Below are positions 11,809 to 19,641 of a DNA stretch of 64,000 bases, in pieces; the stretch's first letter is position 1; each line of letters opens with the position of its first letter. Both the position numbers and the translations under genes were made by a program. The DNA is taken from NCBI RefSeq assembly GCF_000772105.1, contig NZ_CP009354.1, forward strand, positions 2,232,001 to 2,296,000. Direction: 5' to 3'. The notes under the pieces are model-generated. The model was given only the letters and a program-made list of their open reading frames with translations. It ran no database searches and was not told the origin of the DNA. The stretch comes from Vibrio tubiashii ATCC 19109 (GTDB lineage: Bacteria > Pseudomonadota > Gammaproteobacteria > Enterobacterales > Vibrionaceae).

Positions 11809-12537
11809 ATGGATGTGCGCAATAGCGATATGGAGGCAATCTGCCATGTATTCAGACGCTACGTCGAATATATGGGGGTTGATCAGACCGTATCTTACTC
11901 TCGAGTTGACACTCATCTTCACCAAGTCAAAACCGTATCCACCAACTATTCTTGGCATCTCGCTTATTGGGGAGATGAACTGTACAAAAATCTCCATTCG
12001 CGGCTCAAACCCGGGATAAACATGTGGAACAGTCAAAGAGTGCAGAATTTTAGTGGCTCGTGTAAAGCAAGTCACAATCGAGTGGATATTGTCACCAAGA
12101 ACGGTTTTGATTATGACATTCTTTCAATTTCTCTTCCTACGACCCCCCAACCATGTGATTTGGTCGGCCAGACGATTGCTATCAGATCTAAGATTAACCA
12201 ACTTGCTTTGGAGTGCTGGAGCGACAAAGAGATTCAGATTCCTATCGATAATCTATCGACATCAAACTCAGTGCTTGCTGAACCAAAAGAGTATGTATTT
12301 GGTGAAATTACTTTGACTCAAGACGAGCTCACCAGCGTAGGTTACTTTCTTGAAATGAAAACCTGTTATGAAGTCTCAGTCATTAGAGGTTGTACCGAAG
12401 CGAAAGAAGCGCACCGCCTTAACACTATCCGATACAAACTTGGCTGCGAAAACCAGCCCGATTCCTTCTTTTTTAACAAACTGGTAGAGCTAGGAGTAAC
12501 CGTCGCATGTCTGGACAGTTTCATCATATCTCGCTAA
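11809..12537 (+). CDS. Putative LuxR-type transcriptional regulator (divergent HTH)
   Basis: 242-aa protein, not assigned to a named family with certainty. Residues 1-150 (WHLAYWGDELYKNLHSRL; LSISLP) resemble the mixed alpha/beta sensory half of LuxR solos. The C-terminal stretch from LTQDELTSVGYFLEMKT to TIRYKLGCENQ (about 168-222) aligns with the LuxR/FixJ four-helix DNA-binding domain, with the LT..E..V start and the KLG end conserved but the recognition helix unusual. It heads a three-gene operon and overlaps the VOC gene by 31 bp, so it probably controls the VOC protein and transporter. The ribosome site is weak; ATG at 11830 is an alternative start. DNA-binding role is inference. Confidence 0.55.
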   Translation: MDVRNSDMEAICHVFRRYVEYMGVDQTVSYSRVDTHLHQVKTVSTNYSWHLAYWGDELYKNLHSRLKPGINMWNSQRVQNFSGSCKASHNRVDIVTKNGFDYDILSISLPTTPQPCDLVGQTIAIRSKINQLALECWSDKEIQIPIDNLSTSNSVLAEPKEYVFGEITLTQDELTSVGYFLEMKTCYEVSVIRGCTEAKEAHRLNTIRYKLGCENQPDSFFFNKLVELGVTVACLDSFIISR

Positions 12538-12890
12538 CCGTGAGCGACTTGATCGTGAGCCAAAAGTTCTACGCATTGTTTGGTTATCAGCTTGAGCGCA
12601 ATTTCCAAGATGAACAAGTCACTATTCACATGTTGGAAAACCAAGGCTCAAGAATTGAGCTTTTTCATTTTAATGGGGAAGCCTTTACCCCAACACCCGA
12701 GCCACTCATGACTTTAAGAAGAATGGGGATTACTCATTTTGCTTTACGAGTGAGCGGACTTGAAACCTTTCATAGAAAATTATCGGAAGTCACCAACATC
12801 ACTACTATATACAACGCTAGGCTAGGTAGTTTCCGTTACTTTTTCTGTTCAGATCCCGATGGAAATCAAATCGAAGTTATAGAGGAGTAA
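12507..12890 (+). CDS. VOC (glyoxalase/bleomycin-resistance/dioxygenase) family protein
   Basis: 127-aa single-module vicinal-oxygen-chelate protein. Candidate metal ligands are at the expected strand positions: His6/His7 (FHHISLTV), Glu in RIELFHF, His in ITHFALRV and Glu in NQIEVIEE at the C-terminus. Members include glyoxalase I, fosfomycin- and bleomycin-resistance proteins and extradiol dioxygenases; the sequence does not tell which. It overlaps the LuxR-like gene and sits six bases before the MFS gene, so the three form one transcript. A detoxification or sequestration role paired with export or uptake is an inference. Confidence 0.85.
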   Translation: MSGQFHHISLTVSDLIVSQKFYALFGYQLERNFQDEQVTIHMLENQGSRIELFHFNGEAFTPTPEPLMTLRRMGITHFALRVSGLETFHRKLSEVTNITTIYNARLGSFRYFFCSDPDGNQIEVIEE

Positions 12891-12896
12891 AACAGA

Positions 12897-14093
12897 ATGT
12901 CACTCACTTGGAAACAGCGCAGCAGTACTGTACTTGGAAATGCTATGGAGTTCTACGATATCGCGGTATTCGCATCGATATCGATCTACATTTCCCAGTT
13001 GTTTGCCACTCAAGGTATTGAGCATTCAGAATTTGTAGTTTGGGGAGTGTTTGCCCTACGTTTCTTGGTTAGACCGTTTGGTGGCATTATCATTGGTCGC
13101 TACGCTGATAAGTACGGACGTAAAAGAGCATTAGTATTCTGTAACCTACTCACTGGTATCGCAACCGTGGCCATGGCATTCGTCCCTGTCGAAATTGTTG
13201 GACAATATGTGGTTGTGGTTTTTCTGTTCTTCCAGATGATTCAATCATTTAGCTTTGGTGGCGAGTACCCTACTCTGATTAACTACCTACTGTATGATGC
13301 AAAGAAAACAGAGCGATCACGAGTGAGTAGCTTAATAGTGGCGAGCTCAATCGTCGGCGTTATCATCTCACTCTTGATTGTCGCGGGATTAGAGAGTGTG
13401 TTAAGCGCAAAAGAGATGAGCGAATGGGGCTGGAGAGTGCCATTGCTGGTTGGAGTAGCAAACATCATAGTTAGCCTCTATCTGCGCCTTTCTTTGCCTG
13501 AGCTGCCTAAAGCACACGCTGTAGCAAGTAAATCTAGCCGCGCAATCATTGCCAAAGTATTTTGCATCTCAATTCTTGGTGCGGTGGTCTTCTATGTACA
13601 AAACTTAGCGAGTGGAATTCTAGGTAAAGCAATGAACATCGACAACCTTGCACTCATCAACTCTTCAATCCTCGTAGTCATGCTATTTGCCTTTGCGGTG
13701 TTTGTTGATAAACGCTATTCGCCGACAAAAGCATTTAAGACCGGTGCGCTGCTAATGTTGTTTTCTGCCGTTCCACTGTTTGCTCTGCTTGGTTCGAATC
13801 AATTTGTCTGGCAAGCATTAGCGGTGTTAGGAATCAGCAGTTTATCGGCTATCATACTCGGTAACTTGGCGGCTCTTTTATGGCAGCAGTCTGACAACCA
13901 AACCACGAGCTTAGGTATTGGCTACAATATCGCGCTGTCTATTTTTGGAGGACTCACACCATTGATCGTCACAGAAGCGATGTTATTTAGCCCTGCCTAT
14001 GTAGGTATTTACGTCGCGATAGCCACAATACCAGGATTAACCGTGTTATATCGTTTCAATACCCAAAGGCTTCAGAAACCAGTAGAAGCATAG
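12897..14093 (+). CDS. MFS transporter, metabolite:H+ symporter (MHS) type
   Basis: 398-aa major facilitator with about 12 hydrophobic segments. The N-terminus GNAMEFYDIAVFASI, the loop GRYADKYGRKRAL after helix 2 and the segment FSFGGEYPTLINYLL after helix 4 are the pattern of the MHS subfamily (ProP, CitA, ShiA, KgtP), which are proton-coupled importers of small metabolites. It is shorter than most MHS proteins (420-550 aa) and lacks a C-terminal coiled coil. Last gene of the cassette; a hairpin with a T-run follows at 14256. Substrate unknown. Confidence 0.85.
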   Translation: MSLTWKQRSSTVLGNAMEFYDIAVFASISIYISQLFATQGIEHSEFVVWGVFALRFLVRPFGGIIIGRYADKYGRKRALVFCNLLTGIATVAMAFVPVEIVGQYVVVVFLFFQMIQSFSFGGEYPTLINYLLYDAKKTERSRVSSLIVASSIVGVIISLLIVAGLESVLSAKEMSEWGWRVPLLVGVANIIVSLYLRLSLPELPKAHAVASKSSRAIIAKVFCISILGAVVFYVQNLASGILGKAMNIDNLALINSSILVVMLFAFAVFVDKRYSPTKAFKTGALLMLFSAVPLFALLGSNQFVWQALAVLGISSLSAIILGNLAALLWQQSDNQTTSLGIGYNIALSIFGGLTPLIVTEAMLFSPAYVGIYVAIATIPGLTVLYRFNTQRLQKPVEA

Positions 14094-15431: not shown

Positions 15432-16772
15432 CTAGAAAGGAAATACCGTATTCATATTGGATGACATTAAATCTCTTAGCTTCAAGAGCCCTTCCTCTAA
15501 ACGTTCATCAGTACTGACCGACATCAGTGATAAACGTATATGGTTTGTCCCCTCTCCACTCGCGTCAAAGTAACTTCCACTGCTAACAATAACACCACGA
15601 TTTTTGGCTTCCATCATAAACCTTTCCTGTGGCCACGATTTTGGCAAAGGGACCCATAGATGATACCCCGCCGCCGAGCTATCAACGTCAGTCAAAATTT
15701 CTCGTGCTATTTTTTGCCGCCTCTGGGCAACGCTTCTTTGAGTTGCAGCGATTTCGAACGCCTCGCCAGATTCGATCATATTTGTGGCAGCAATATAATT
15801 AATCGGAGAAGATAACCAGATGTTTGCGCGTATATGAGCATTGATCAACGCCACCTGTCTATCGGGCACTTTGACATACCCACAACGCATTGCGGGACTA
15901 ATTGCTTTGGAAAGTCCCGAAATATGAAAGGCATAATCTGGTGCAAAGTTACTCACTGCTGGCAAAGTCATTTGATCCAAAAAACAATAAATATCATCTT
16001 CTATAAGCCAAACTTCATTGTCTTTGACTACTTTAGCAATCTCTTTTCGGCGAGACTCTGGCATTGTTATCCCTGTCGGGTTTTGGTGAGAAGGAACGAC
16101 AATAACAGCCTTGATATCATGCTGAAGAATTGAATTCTCTAGTTCCGTAGGCGACATCCCTGCTTCATCCATAGGTATGGCGACCACTTGTCTTCCAGAC
16201 AAACTGGCTATCGCTAAAATCCCCGGATAAGTAAGCGCCTCAACAGCAATTGCATCACCAGGTTTCGTTAGTGCGTTTATTAGCAAAGATAAGGCATGCT
16301 GCGCCCCATTAGTGAGCAGAGTATTTTTCGTGTTTCCACCCTCAAGCCCAAAGTATTTCGCCCATTCAACACCTGCTCGCCTATGTTCTTCATGTCCCGA
16401 GTGCTCCGTATAACCAATCAAATCAGCAGACAGCGTTTGACTCGCCACTTCTAGCGCCTTCTTTAGTTGTGGAACATTTTTGTATAGACAAGGCTGAAGA
16501 ATCGAAAAGTTGTAATCCTTCTCATCTTCTGGCGGTTGAATCGCTTGATTTAGCGTTACATCACCACACACAAATGTGCCTCTTCCTACAAAAGACTCCA
16601 CTCTTCCTTTTTCAGCAAGCAACTTGTAAGCCTTCGCTACTGTCGCTGGCGTGGTATCAAGTTCATCAGCAAGAGTACGATGCGGTGGCAATTTAAAGTT
16701 AACTGGATATTCACCTCGGTCAATTCTTAGCTCAATTGCCTCGGCTATCTGATTAAACTTATTCTCACTCAC
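15432..16772 (-). CDS. MocR-type regulator (GntR HTH fused to class I aminotransferase domain)
   Basis: 446-aa PLP-dependent transcription factor. Residues 1-70 form a GntR winged helix (PPHRTLADELDTTPATVAKAY). Residues 85-440 are a fold-type I aminotransferase domain with NPTG at 231-234, the Asp/Tyr pair EDDIY near 258-262 and the PLP lysine K289 in SGLSKAI, so PLP binding should be intact. MocR proteins sense amino acids or amines (GabR: GABA; TauR: taurine; PdxR: PLP) and often control a divergent operon. Here the divergent operon is the dioxygenase-dehydrogenase-permease set, with two dyads in the 160-bp gap. The ligand is unknown and is probably the substrate of that operon. Confidence 0.9.
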   Translation of the reverse strand: MSENKFNQIAEAIELRIDRGEYPVNFKLPPHRTLADELDTTPATVAKAYKLLAEKGRVESFVGRGTFVCGDVTLNQAIQPPEDEKDYNFSILQPCLYKNVPQLKKALEVASQTLSADLIGYTEHSGHEEHRRAGVEWAKYFGLEGGNTKNTLLTNGAQHALSLLINALTKPGDAIAVEALTYPGILAIASLSGRQVVAIPMDEAGMSPTELENSILQHDIKAVIVVPSHQNPTGITMPESRRKEIAKVVKDNEVWLIEDDIYCFLDQMTLPAVSNFAPDYAFHISGLSKAISPAMRCGYVKVPDRQVALINAHIRANIWLSSPINYIAATNMIESGEAFEIAATQRSVAQRRQKIAREILTDVDSSAAGYHLWVPLPKSWPQERFMMEAKNRGVIVSSGSYFDASGEGTNHIRLSLMSVSTDERLEEGLLKLRDLMSSNMNTVFPF

Positions 16773-16817
16773 CTTGAATTCCTCTCTGTCTCACGGTTAA
16801 GAACATTATGACCTAGT

Positions 16818-16842
16818 TTAATTGGTATTGAAATTCAATTAA
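16818..16842. promoter_or_regulatory. Inverted repeat in MocR/dioxygenase intergenic region
   Basis: Seven-base perfect arms TTAATTG (16818-16824) and CAATTAA (16836-16842) with an 11-bp spacer, about 46 bp before the MocR start codon. Candidate operator for autoregulation. AT-rich, so chance is possible. Confidence 0.45.
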
Positions 16843-16860
16843 CATTTTAAAACAAAAATA

Positions 16861-16889
16861 TTGACATATGTCATTACAAGCAATTACAT
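16861..16889 (+). promoter_or_regulatory. Candidate promoter and 12-bp palindrome for the dioxygenase operon
   Basis: TTGACA at 16861-16866 is a perfect -35 box, with TTACAT 17 bp downstream as a modest -10. The -35 is embedded in TGACATATGTCA (16862-16873), a perfect 12-bp palindrome, where a bound regulator would touch RNA polymerase. The initiation codon at 16933 lies downstream. Confidence 0.55.
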
Positions 16890-16932
16890 TAGCCAAATAA
16901 ATAATAACAACGTCAAACTAGGCATACGGAAA

Positions 16933-17952
16933 ATGTTACATTTACAAAAAGAGCCCCAAGAAACGCTCGAAATACAGGAAATCTACATCCCATACGACTC
17001 TGCTCAGAGGTTAAAAAGCGCATTTTCACATCTACGAATGAGTGATGATAGTGCATGGTTAAATTCTAAAGAGTGGTTAGGAAGTACTGTTAAACACAGC
17101 CTCCCCAATAATATTGTGGAGACCATTGAAGATTTCACCCGCTCAGAACAACAGTCAGCGTTAATCATTCGAGGGCTTCCTGTCGATGCTGACCTGTGTT
17201 CAACTCCTTACCAAGGCTACCTACCTCCAAGTAAAACGCCTTTAGCAAGTGCCTGTCATATTGGCATATATCAATTGGCCAAAATCGAACCTATTGCTTA
17301 TAAGACCGAAAACAATGGATTTCTATTTAGGCATGTTGTTCCTTCCATTCATTCTAGGAACGAAAAGTCTTCTCACGGTTCAACACATACTTTTGGCCAT
17401 CATGTAGACAATCCAGACCTCCCCTTATTGAGTGAAAACATAAGTCAGAAAAGTGGTTGTCCTGAATACCTATCACTTATGGCCCTTCGCACAGATCTAA
17501 GAGTTCGCTCTAACTTCGTGCTGTTAGACGACATCCTGAGCAACCTAAGTCAAGGAGTCATTGAGGCACTGAGCTTACCTCAATTCCAGATAGCTCGACC
17601 TGATTCATTTGGACAAGACATTCGCACTGTATTGCCTCTCCTCACTTACGATAAGTCTGGGATCGCACTTTGCCGTTACGACAAGGAAAATACAACGCCG
17701 CTCAATGAACAAGCTGCTGCTGCATTGGTGATGCTAGATGCACAGCTGAAAGAGACTAGCTTGCAAAATTCAATTACTTATCAGCCAGGAGACCTACTGA
17801 TTATTAAGAATCAAAGATTGCTTCATAGCAGAGAAGGATTCTCTCCACGTGACGACGGTACCGATCGCTGGCTAATGCGTCTGTTTGGTATGAAGTCACT
17901 ATCACGACTAGTGCAAGCCTACCCTGACGTAAAACACATAGGAAAAGACTAA
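16933..17952 (+). CDS. Fe(II)/2-oxoglutarate dioxygenase, TauD/clavaminate synthase-like (amino acid hydroxylase type)
   Basis: 339-aa non-haem iron oxygenase from ATG at 16933 (CGGA site). A frame extending to TTG at 16861 would run through the promoter-like TTGACA, so I reject it. The facial triad is readable: His157 and Asp159 in GHHVDNP and distal His298 in RLLHSR, with the 2-oxoglutarate arginine Arg312 in DGTDRWLMR, 14 residues after His298. The C-terminal block PGDLLIIKNQRLLHSREGF is closest in pattern to the clavaminate synthase/AsnO/VioC/lysine hydroxylase group, which hydroxylates free amino acids, rather than true taurine dioxygenase (shorter). It begins a three-gene operon with a dehydrogenase and TSUP permease, under a likely MocR regulator. 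Substrate unknown. Confidence 0.85.
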   Translation: MLHLQKEPQETLEIQEIYIPYDSAQRLKSAFSHLRMSDDSAWLNSKEWLGSTVKHSLPNNIVETIEDFTRSEQQSALIIRGLPVDADLCSTPYQGYLPPSKTPLASACHIGIYQLAKIEPIAYKTENNGFLFRHVVPSIHSRNEKSSHGSTHTFGHHVDNPDLPLLSENISQKSGCPEYLSLMALRTDLRVRSNFVLLDDILSNLSQGVIEALSLPQFQIARPDSFGQDIRTVLPLLTYDKSGIALCRYDKENTTPLNEQAAAALVMLDAQLKETSLQNSITYQPGDLLIIKNQRLLHSREGFSPRDDGTDRWLMRLFGMKSLSRLVQAYPDVKHIGKD

Positions 17953-17966
17953 AAAGGAAAATTATC

Positions 17967-18842
17967 ATGGAAATAAAAAATGTAGCGTTTGTTGGCTTAG
18001 GTGTTATGGGTTACCCAATGGCCGGGCATATTTCTAAAGCCGGATTTAACACTCGCGTTTTTAACCGTACGGAAACCAAAGCGAGAAAATGGGCGACTGA
18101 ATATTCTGGTGAATTTGCCATTACACCCGCTGCGGCTGCGAAAGGCTGCGATGTGGTTGCAATCTGTGTAGGGAATGACGACGACGTTCGAAGTGTAGTC
18201 TTTGGGAAAGATGGCGTACTAGTCAGCATGGAAGCTGGGGCAGTGCTGATTGACCATACAACCACTTCTGCTGAGTTAGCCCTTGAACTCGCAGACGCCT
18301 GCTCGGCTAAAGGAGTACAGTTCATTGACGCTCCTGTTTCAGGTGGTCAAGCAGGTGCAGAGAACGGTGCGCTGACCATTATGTGCGGAGGAGATTCAAA
18401 TACGTTCAAAAGCCTATCTCCCTTACTTAATACATACGGCAAACAATCTGTGTTGCTAGGAGAAAATGGGCAAGGTCAGCGTTGCAAAATGGTGAATCAA
18501 GTTTGTATCGCTGGGATATTGCAAGGCTTAAGCGAAGCACTTCAACTTGCTCAATCGTCAGATTTAGACGTAAAGCAAGTCGTCAATGTACTCAAGCATG
18601 GCGCTGCAGGTTCTTGGCAAATGGAAAACCGCGCAGTCACCATGTCTAATAATGAATTCGACTTTGGCTTTGCCATTGACTGGATGCGCAAAGATTTAGG
18701 CATCTGCCTAAACGAAGCAAAGAAAAACGATCTTCGCCTCCCAATGACTAAAGAGGTGGACGGTATGTATCAAACACTTCAAGAGCAAGGGTTTGGTCGA
18801 ATGGATACATCCGTTTTAATACAAGCATACCAAAAACAATAA
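17967..18842 (+). CDS. NAD(P)-dependent beta-hydroxyacid dehydrogenase family oxidoreductase
   Basis: 291-aa member of the 3-hydroxyisobutyrate/tartronate-semialdehyde/sulfolactaldehyde reductase family. The N-terminal Rossmann motif is GLGVMG (10-15), and Asn33-Arg34 followed by Thr and Lys suggests NADP(H) preference. The substrate loop is DAPVSGG (121-127) and the catalytic Lys174 lies in CKMVNQ. The family acts on beta-hydroxy acids, which fits oxidation of the hydroxylated product of the dioxygenase 14 bp upstream. Ribosome site AAGGA. Exact substrate unknown. Confidence 0.88.
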   Translation: MEIKNVAFVGLGVMGYPMAGHISKAGFNTRVFNRTETKARKWATEYSGEFAITPAAAAKGCDVVAICVGNDDDVRSVVFGKDGVLVSMEAGAVLIDHTTTSAELALELADACSAKGVQFIDAPVSGGQAGAENGALTIMCGGDSNTFKSLSPLLNTYGKQSVLLGENGQGQRCKMVNQVCIAGILQGLSEALQLAQSSDLDVKQVVNVLKHGAAGSWQMENRAVTMSNNEFDFGFAIDWMRKDLGICLNEAKKNDLRLPMTKEVDGMYQTLQEQGFGRMDTSVLIQAYQKQ

Positions 18843-18855
18843 GGAGCAAAATACT

Positions 18856-19641
18856 ATGGAATGGCTAGGTAATGATATTACCCTTTGGGTTTTAATTGCT
18901 CTGATGATTTCAGCGTTTGCTGCTGGTTTCATTGACAGTGTCGCGGGAGGTGGTGGTCTTATATTAGTTCCATCTTTTATATTGGCGGGGTTACCGCCTC
19001 AGATCGCTTTAGGCCAAGAGAAGATTGTCAGCACTCTAGGCACTATAGCTGCGATACGTAATTTCATGCGAAATAAGTGCGTCGTTTGGACCGCTGTTGC
19101 AACGGGTATCCCCGCAGGGCTTGCTGGGGCTTACTTCGGTGCTGAGGCTATTTTATATTTCGAGCCAGAGACTATTGGTAAAATCATTTTGGGAATGCTG
19201 CCTATTGGTATCGTTTTATCGTTTATTCCCAAGAAAAACAACGCTTCATCTGAAGAGAAACCAATCAATAAGCATGTTATTTTGTTCGGCGTTCCTTCGG
19301 CTGTTTTTGTCATTGGTTTTTACGATGGCTTCTTCGGACCAGGGACCGGAAGCTTTTTAATCCTTGCGCTACATTACCTTTTAAGGTTTGACTTAGTCTC
19401 TGCATCAGCAACATCAAAGTTGTTCAACTTTGCCTCCAATATTGGTGCGCTGATTGCGTTTATGCTGGCAGGTAACGTCCTCTATGCGTTGGCATTGCCT
19501 TTGGTTGCAATGAACTTACTAGGAAATCACTTTGGAAGCGCTTCTGCAATGAAATATGGTGCAAAGCTTATCCAACGAACAATCTCACTCTCGTTGACGC
19601 TTCTCATGTGCTCACTTGGCTATAAATTTTTAGTCGCGTAA
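18856..19641 (+). CDS. TSUP family permease (TauE/SafE type)
   Basis: 261-aa inner-membrane protein with 7-8 hydrophobic helices. The duplicated family signature is visible as GFIDSVAGGGGLILVPS (about 25-41) and GFYDGFFGPGTGSFLI (about 154-169). TSUP members move sulfite, sulfonates, sulfoacetate or other organic anions in taurine and related pathways. It begins 13 bp after the dehydrogenase gene, so export or import of the pathway's substrate or product is likely. Direction and cargo cannot be read from sequence. Confidence 0.88.
   Translation: MEWLGNDITLWVLIALMISAFAAGFIDSVAGGGGLILVPSFILAGLPPQIALGQEKIVSTLGTIAAIRNFMRNKCVVWTAVATGIPAGLAGAYFGAEAILYFEPETIGKIILGMLPIGIVLSFIPKKNNASSEEKPINKHVILFGVPSAVFVIGFYDGFFGPGTGSFLILALHYLLRFDLVSASATSKLFNFASNIGALIAFMLAGNVLYALALPLVAMNLLGNHFGSASAMKYGAKLIQRTISLSLTLLMCSLGYKFLVA

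What the first reader, a model, noticed from the sequence alone, without database searches (positions are those of the whole stretch)
15432..19641. MocR-controlled dioxygenase / beta-hydroxyacid dehydrogenase / TSUP permease island
Seen: a MocR regulator with an intact PLP lysine faces an operon of a clavaminate-synthase-like Fe/2OG dioxygenase (His157-x-Asp159, His298, Arg312), a beta-hydroxyacid dehydrogenase (Lys174, NADP-type loop) and a TauE/SafE permease, spaced 13-14 bp. Known: CAS-like enzymes (AsnO, VioC, lysine hydroxylases) hydroxylate free amino acids; MocR proteins sense amino acids or taurine; TSUP carriers move sulfonates or organic anions. Inference: the dioxygenase hydroxylates an amino acid-like (possibly sulfonated) substrate, the dehydrogenase oxidises the new hydroxyl group, and the permease moves substrate or product. 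I know of no described pathway with this exact set.
Basis: partly seen in the sequence, partly recalled or inferred. Interest (0 to 1): 0.78.

Follow-up and report, generated by a model that had tools for sequence, protein, structure and literature searches.

The report
Probable amino-acid hydroxylase and exporter operon
A Vibrio-type bacterium carries an operon that probably hydroxylates a free amino acid and exports the product; related bacteria keep the hydroxylase-transporter pair with other helper genes, and several vibrios have lost the hydroxylase but kept its neighbours.

Summary
The genes are real and co-occur elsewhere: MocR (15432-16772, minus) faces dioxygenase-dehydrogenase-TSUP, gaps 14 and 13 bp. 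Correction: the dioxygenase starts at ATG 16933; the upstream TTG (16861) begins a conserved palindrome, TTGACATATGTCA, the probable MocR operator. The dioxygenase has the clavaminate-synthase-like fold (nearest AsnO, KDO1, VioC; at most 27% identity), an intact iron triad, and fails every curated enzyme cut-off that it was compared with.

In 75 loci a transporter lies within two genes downstream in 72: TSUP in 66, LysE, NhaC plus LysE, or MATE in six more distant relatives. Accessories vary: this dehydrogenase, a YdfG-like dehydrogenase, a YbaK-type tRNA-editing protein, or second tryptophan synthase genes. In the genus, of 17 loci chosen by TSUP the dioxygenase is intact in 2, a remnant in 10, absent in 5; MocR is intact in 16, the dehydrogenase in 13.

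Best reading: hydroxylation of a free amino acid with a polar side chain, then export (0.5). Sulfonate catabolism lacks positive evidence. 'Island' is not supported: composition is native, and three relatives hold reduced versions at the same site. Substrate, product, transport direction and role are unproven.

The parts
15432..16772 (-). MocR-type regulator (GntR domain + aminotransferase-like domain, Lys289), divergent from the operon
   Evidence: (best NCBIfam EhuR 347.6 bits, cut-off 480)
16861..16873 (.). palindrome TTGACATATGTCA, probable MocR operator, overlapping a -35-like hexamer (-10-like TACATT at 16885-16890)
   Evidence: (TTGACATA on either strand in 21 of 21 intergenic regions)
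16933..17952 (+). clavaminate-synthase-like Fe(II)/2OG dioxygenase, 339 aa from ATG 16933
   Evidence: (model mean pLDDT 90.3)
17967..18842 (+). beta-hydroxyacid dehydrogenase, 291 aa (Lys174, NRT loop; best NCBIfam TIGR01505 230.5 bits, cut-off 340.75)
18856..19641 (+). TauE/SafE-family (TSUP) membrane transporter, 261 aa, the most conserved product of the set

Best explanation
An operon for making and exporting a hydroxylated free amino acid, under local MocR control. MocR senses an amine through its PLP pocket and acts at the palindrome TTGACATATGTCA. The dioxygenase uses Fe(II), O2 and 2-oxoglutarate to hydroxylate a free L-amino acid with a polar, hydrogen-bond-donating side chain (Asn/Gln-like or basic), most likely at C3. 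TSUP exports the product. The dehydrogenase interconverts the new hydroxyl group and a ketone, as a finishing or a detoxifying step. Shown: gene content, predicted fold, iron triad, conserved palindrome, recurring dioxygenase-transporter pairing. Inferred: substrate, position of hydroxylation, direction of transport, regulator ligand, role of the dehydrogenase.
For: Fold: model mean pLDDT 90.3; Foldseek puts AsnO and KDO1 first, VIA-align gives KDO1, VioC, AsnO and CmnC within one Z unit, 35-36. H157, D159, H298, R312, E126, S147 are invariant in 34 rows that I picked from 120 hits. E126 and S147 align with the AsnO/KDO1 positions that PMC6224419 (passages; sections 10 and 11) assigns to the substrate's amino and carboxylate groups; D250/E252 align with VioC D268/D270. 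A transporter lies within two genes in 72 of 75 loci, of LysE, NhaC+LysE or MATE type in six, which argues for export. A YdfG-like SDR (25 loci) takes the place of this dehydrogenase; the best NCBIfam models of both are beta-hydroxyacid-type enzymes, below cut-off, which fits a beta-hydroxy product. The palindrome half TTGACATA is kept to Marinomonas and Parendozoicomonas. At these genus loci the dioxygenase is the gene most often broken.
Against: No substrate or product is known. TSUP proteins can carry sulfite or other anions, and direction is not shown. The six exporter swaps are in the more distant relatives (four of them 35-39% identical to the query), and three lie on contigs under 5 kb (L048, L085, L124), so they say less about this operon. 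A dehydrogenase of this family occurs in 182 of 196 genus genomes, in the eight extra sites that I looked at without the other three genes, so it may serve something else. In the LysR clade N250 replaces D250 in 30 of 30 rows, so the family need not share one substrate. S147 lies in a stretch of low model confidence (mean pLDDT 64 for 141-150). The palindrome was not found beside MocR in G135, G043, G099, G157, G111, G145 and G013. The substrate guess rests on a few residues aligned at about 25% identity.
Confidence: 0.5

Rival explanations
1. Catabolic operon: TSUP imports an amino acid or organic anion, the dioxygenase hydroxylates it, the dehydrogenase oxidises the hydroxyl group, and MocR senses the substrate.
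For: Described MocR regulons include taurine, GABA and ectoine use (PMC5320631, passages). Dehydrogenase and permease in one operon suit a route of use. The best NCBIfam match of MocR is the ectoine-utilisation regulator EhuR, below its cut-off.
Against: LysE or MATE stands in for TSUP in some distant relatives. At genus loci the first enzyme is the gene most often broken while MocR, dehydrogenase and transporter stay, the reverse of what a catabolic route needs. The added genes in relatives are a tRNA-editing-domain protein or second TrpAB copies.
Confidence: 0.25
2. Loose neighbourhood: MocR and the dehydrogenase (with or without TSUP) are a unit with its own role in vibrios, and the dioxygenase is a dispensable passenger between them.
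For: MocR stands next to the dehydrogenase without dioxygenase and TSUP in 9 of the 15 TSUP-less genomes that I fetched; the dehydrogenase stands without the other three at the same site in two relatives. Dioxygenase intact in 2 of 17 genus loci. Five of the 17 show no trace of it.
Against: The complete four-gene order recurs in Vibrio hepatarius, Photobacterium, Celerinatantimonas, Parendozoicomonas and Marinomonas, and the dioxygenase-TSUP pair holds in Pseudomonas, Serratia and Deefgea without this dehydrogenase.
Confidence: 0.17
3. Sulfonate route: the dioxygenase hydroxylates an amino-sulfonate such as cysteate next to sulfur, sulfite leaves and is exported by TSUP, and the dehydrogenase handles the aldehyde.
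For: TSUP includes the sulfite exporter TauE, TauD desulfonates taurine, and TauR is a MocR protein (PMC5320631, passages). Several of the dehydrogenase's NCBIfam matches are semialdehyde reductases, below cut-off.
Against: The pocket positions that meet the side chain in VioC are acidic here. LysE or MATE in place of TSUP does not fit sulfite. In the 15 neighbourhoods listed by eye I recognised no sulfonate uptake system; this was no systematic search.
Confidence: 0.08

Closest known systems
AsnO (asparagine 3-hydroxylase, PDB 2og7)
   Different: 27% identity; His-x-Asp in place of His-x-Glu; Ser147 for Asn146; Glu252 where AsnO has Ala; here beside a transporter and MocR.
VioC and GntD (arginine / enduracididine 3-hydroxylases)
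   Same: Fold; GntD is the best NCBIfam match; D250/E252 align with VioC D268/D270.
   Different: Far below the cut-offs (67.8 of 418.6; 101.6 of 345); VioC Asp222 of the lid aligns with Pro223.
AMB toxin cluster of Pseudomonas aeruginosa (ambABCDE)
   Same: Two Fe/2OG oxygenases and a putative LysE-type transporter for a toxic non-protein amino acid (abstract start in a search listing, PMC4357302).
   Different: AMB also needs two peptide synthetases; no such gene lies among the window ORFs read around the operon (10-26 kb). Comparison of roles only; no sequences compared.
Canavanyl-tRNA(Arg) deacylase (CtdA, name recalled)
   Same: A standalone editing protein that guards translation against a non-protein amino acid (abstract start in a search listing, PMC10018355); a model for the YbaK-type gene in 30 relatives.
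   Different: No such gene in this operon; no sequences compared.

Membership tests
Clavaminate-synthase-like Fe(II)/2OG oxygenases | His-x-Asp/Glu...His iron triad and conserved Arg residues | tested here: met
   H157, D159, H298, R312, R316 invariant in 34 chosen rows
Clavaminate-synthase-like Fe(II)/2OG oxygenases | Overall fold | tested here: met
Clavaminate-synthase-like Fe(II)/2OG oxygenases | 2OG-dependent oxidation of an amino acid or derivative | not testable with these tools
   needs the purified enzyme
VioC / GntD / clavaminate synthase Cs1 equivalogs | Score above the curated NCBIfam cut-off | tested here: not met
   67.8 of 418.6; 101.6 of 345; 80.9 of 450
AsnO | Pocket residues Glu125, Asn146, Asp241 | tested here: not met
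   first and third kept (E126, D250), Asn146 aligns with Ser147
MocR regulators | GntR domain, aminotransferase-like domain, PLP lysine | tested here: met
   PF00392 and PF00155 above cut-off; SGLSKAI, Lys289
EhuR (ectoine MocR) | Score above the curated cut-off | tested here: not met
   347.6 of 480
TSUP (TauE/SafE) | Pfam PF01925 over nearly the full length | tested here: met
   145.8 bits, cut-off 32.6, residues 16-252 of 261
TSUP (TauE/SafE) | Sulfite or sulfonate transport | not testable with these tools
   needs a transport assay
Beta-hydroxyacid dehydrogenases | NAD_binding_2 + NAD_binding_11 and catalytic Lys | tested here: met
   173.1 and 106.6 bits; Lys174
Tartronate semialdehyde reductase / HIBADH equivalogs | Score above the curated cut-off | tested here: not met
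   230.5 of 340.75; 178 of 291.6

The most novel reading that the evidence does not exclude
A widespread cassette of three or four genes, without peptide synthetases, makes and exports a toxic hydroxy-amino acid; clades carry different self-protection (tRNA-editing protein, second tryptophan synthase, dehydrogenase), and several vibrios have lost the maker gene but kept sensor, transporter and dehydrogenase, living as protected non-producers.
Probability: 0.25. Interest if true: 0.75.

Novelty: new variant of a known kind. Interest (0 to 1): 0.5.

Why it matters
If right, a clavaminate-synthase-like clade with no characterised member that I found, present in Vibrio, Photobacterium, Marinomonas, Halomonas, Pseudomonas and others, makes an exported amino-acid derivative with very few genes. 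The swaps of helper genes and the switch from D250 to N250 between clades give testable predictions of substrate; eroded copies in the genus allow a test of whether non-producers keep protection. It would also give a role to a group of TSUP transporters and to a MocR regulator.

Tried and rejected
Not supported: 'island' (native composition; reduced forms at the same site in three relatives), though gain of genes at that site is not excluded. Rejected: TTG 16861 as start codon. Not supported: desulfonation. Rejected: EhuR membership. Tried: regulon by the pattern TTGACATANNTCA in eight genomes: all eight have other, imperfect matches, with one or two control matches in most; the perfect palindrome TTGACATATGTCA was found in five genomes (G000, G163, G082, G183, G160), only at this locus, so no second target emerged. 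Tried: class-wide search of 369 genomes: three matches at E 1e-40 or better, one of them the window. Paper searches in the held library that showed no description of this gene set: 20 of 29 listed; 0 papers; 1 paper, a review, not opened; most subscription journals are missing. Promoter and terminator scan: 4 promoter-like sites against a shuffle mean of 8.8, so the promoter rests on the conserved palindrome. Not done: one tree with AsnO, VioC, KDO and TauD; docking.
Full report
Observation. The four genes are present as described: MocR 15432-16772 on the minus strand; dioxygenase, dehydrogenase and TSUP on the plus strand with gaps of 14 and 13 bp. The named residues are there. The dioxygenase begins at ATG 16933; TTG 16861 begins a palindrome that is kept upstream of MocR. 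The window is G000:C1:2232001-2296000. The genus is Vibrio by inference: genus members G188 and G179 have contigs of the same length as the Vibrio cincinnatiensis and Vibrionales SWAT-3 records. G000 holds one dioxygenase match and a second dehydrogenase of the family on C2.

The dioxygenase. An AlphaFold model from an alignment of 34 rows, picked by me from 120 hits, has mean pLDDT 90.3 (64 for residues 141-150). Foldseek puts AsnO and KDO1 first; VIA-align gives KDO1, VioC, AsnO and CmnC within one Z unit, 35-36. Identity is at most 27% among the rows listed. It stays below every NCBIfam cut-off among its seven matches. Alignment to AsnO, KDO1 and VioC places E126 and S147 at positions that PMC6224419 assigns to the substrate's amino and carboxylate groups (passages; sections 10 and 11), and D250/E252 at VioC D268/D270. 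A table in PMC9968057 (passages) lists AsnO D241N, the position of D250, with L-aspartic acid as substrate. D250 and E252 are kept in all 25 rows of the MocR-linked Pseudomonas/Serratia/Deefgea clade; in the LysR-linked Pseudomonas clade D250 is N in 30 of 30 rows and E252 is A in 29 and G in one. So the substrate here is probably an amino acid with a polar or basic side chain; which one is open.

Co-occurrence. One pattern-based scan of the genome-contig collection (84,980 species) gave 73 loci; two more came from a class-wide search, 75 in all. They were found through the dioxygenase, so they say nothing about loci without it. Gene order was read by translated search (first passes 14, 17). 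A transporter lies within two genes downstream in 72 of 75: TSUP 66 (in pieces in L042 and L093), LysE 3, NhaC plus LysE 2, MATE 1 (read, Pfam). Examples of each family were checked by Pfam; the rest rest on similarity. The exceptions are two Erwinia loci, where an MFS gene lies further off, and L092. The six loci without TSUP are distant relatives, three of them on contigs under 5 kb. Architectures: MocR-dioxygenase-dehydrogenase-TSUP in the Vibrio-to-Halomonas group; MocR-dioxygenase-TSUP-SDR in 24, and in Deefgea the same with TrpB and TrpA added; dioxygenase-TSUP-YbaK-type protein in 30, 29 of them with a LysR gene. The SDR's best NCBIfam model is YdfG, below cut-off; the editing protein matches PF04073 and, below cut-off, YbaK models. 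Tree clades agree with these architectures (70 rows, several long branches flagged as unsure, 12 of 67 inner branches open).

Extra tryptophan synthase. TrpB and TrpA lie beside the cluster in 4 of 75 loci (L024, L026, L082, L084; convergent in L084). Each of the four genomes has a further trpB elsewhere with trpA beside it, and in three of them I read trpF and accD next door by eye. The extra copies keep residues that I recall as catalytic, with changes nearby: Met for Gln in the GAGQHG motif of Halomonas, Cys for Ser before GRGDKD in two. Precursor supply, a resistant target and chance cannot be told apart.

Erosion in the genus. Of 196 genus genomes 14 match the dioxygenase; three (G043, G067, G068) hold distant relatives only. 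In the other 11, TSUP is present in 11, MocR is intact at the locus in 10, the dehydrogenase in 8, the dioxygenase in 2, the window included. Chosen instead by TSUP (16 genomes, 17 loci with the window), the dioxygenase is intact in 2, a remnant in 10 and without trace in 5; MocR is intact in 16 and the dehydrogenase in 13. TSUP is 17 of 17 by construction, and in G179 the match covers residues 1-247 only. Some losses are shared (G027 and G137 keep the same remnant); others differ in breakpoint. In the five without trace the gene may never have been there. Outside the genus the dioxygenase is in pieces in Halomonas maura (L084), L092 and L093, and partial in L082 and L088; assembly errors are not excluded. 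TSUP is the most conserved product: median identity to the window 85% (21 loci), against 61% for MocR (20), 64% for full-length dioxygenases (4) and 67% for the dehydrogenase (16) (the 21 loci, two of which appear twice under different handles). TSUP may simply evolve slowly.

Limits of that pattern. MocR matches 35 of 196 genomes. I fetched 15 of the 19 that lack TSUP. In 9 of the 15 MocR stands next to a dehydrogenase without dioxygenase or TSUP (in G010 MocR itself is split over two frames); in G135 a dehydrogenase lies about 2 kb off. Short TSUP remnants remain in three (G061, G150, G010). The palindrome (or its half) was seen beside MocR in G095, G120, G077, G150, G103, G138 and, weaker, G061 and G010, and not in the other seven. 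A dehydrogenase of this family occurs in 182 of 196 genomes. At the window's own site (SppA-AnsA ... SerS; SppA, SerS and RarA named by eye) G095 has MocR and dehydrogenase, G090 and G002 the dehydrogenase alone. The dehydrogenase therefore has a life of its own, and the locus looks more like an old operon in stages of loss than an acquired island.

Regulation. TTGACATA on either strand occurs in 21 of 21 intergenic regions examined, among them five loci without a dioxygenase and those of Marinomonas and Parendozoicomonas; these regions are related, so the 21 are not independent. In eight genomes the perfect palindrome was found only at this locus, in the five genomes that have it; imperfect matches occur elsewhere. 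This supports local control by MocR; binding was not shown.

Conclusion. The best-supported reading is hydroxylation of a free amino acid followed by export under MocR control (0.5). Uptake and catabolism is the main rival (0.25), a loose neighbourhood the next (0.17), a sulfonate route unlikely (0.08). The bolder reading, a toxic amino acid with self-protection genes and protected non-producers, fits the exporter swaps, the editing protein, the second TrpAB and the loss pattern, but nothing here shows toxicity (0.25).

Noticed in passing
L077:9812-10981 and L079:9992-10981 (Erwinia): Dioxygenase relatives with HVS in place of HVD, so the acidic iron ligand is missing, in a shared cluster with a 2OG-Fe_Oxy_2 protein, a WelO5-like match below cut-off (25.4 of 27), an ATP-grasp enzyme, an aminotransferase and an MFS transporter; possibly different chemistry.
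   Followed up: partly
window 11809-14093: A 242-aa protein without Pfam match, a glyoxalase-family protein and an MFS transporter lie between sppA and ansA; in G095, G090 and G002 sppA and ansA are neighbours.
   Followed up: partly
L101:1468-2682: The Parendozoicomonas genome has a third trpB on another contig, beside a gene that reads by eye as a periplasmic amino-acid-binding protein.
   Followed up: no
L136:4693-5313: In G145 the MocR relative faces a LysE-family gene instead of the operon.
   Followed up: no
L105 and L106 (G163): One genome holds both forms: the complete four-gene locus on C1 and a MocR-dehydrogenase-TSUP locus without dioxygenase on C2.
   Followed up: partly
L048 and L055 (alphaproteobacterial MAGs): The dioxygenase-LysE pair follows a gene that reads by eye as a histidyl-tRNA synthetase; in L055 an ABC_sub_bind protein follows.
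   Followed up: no
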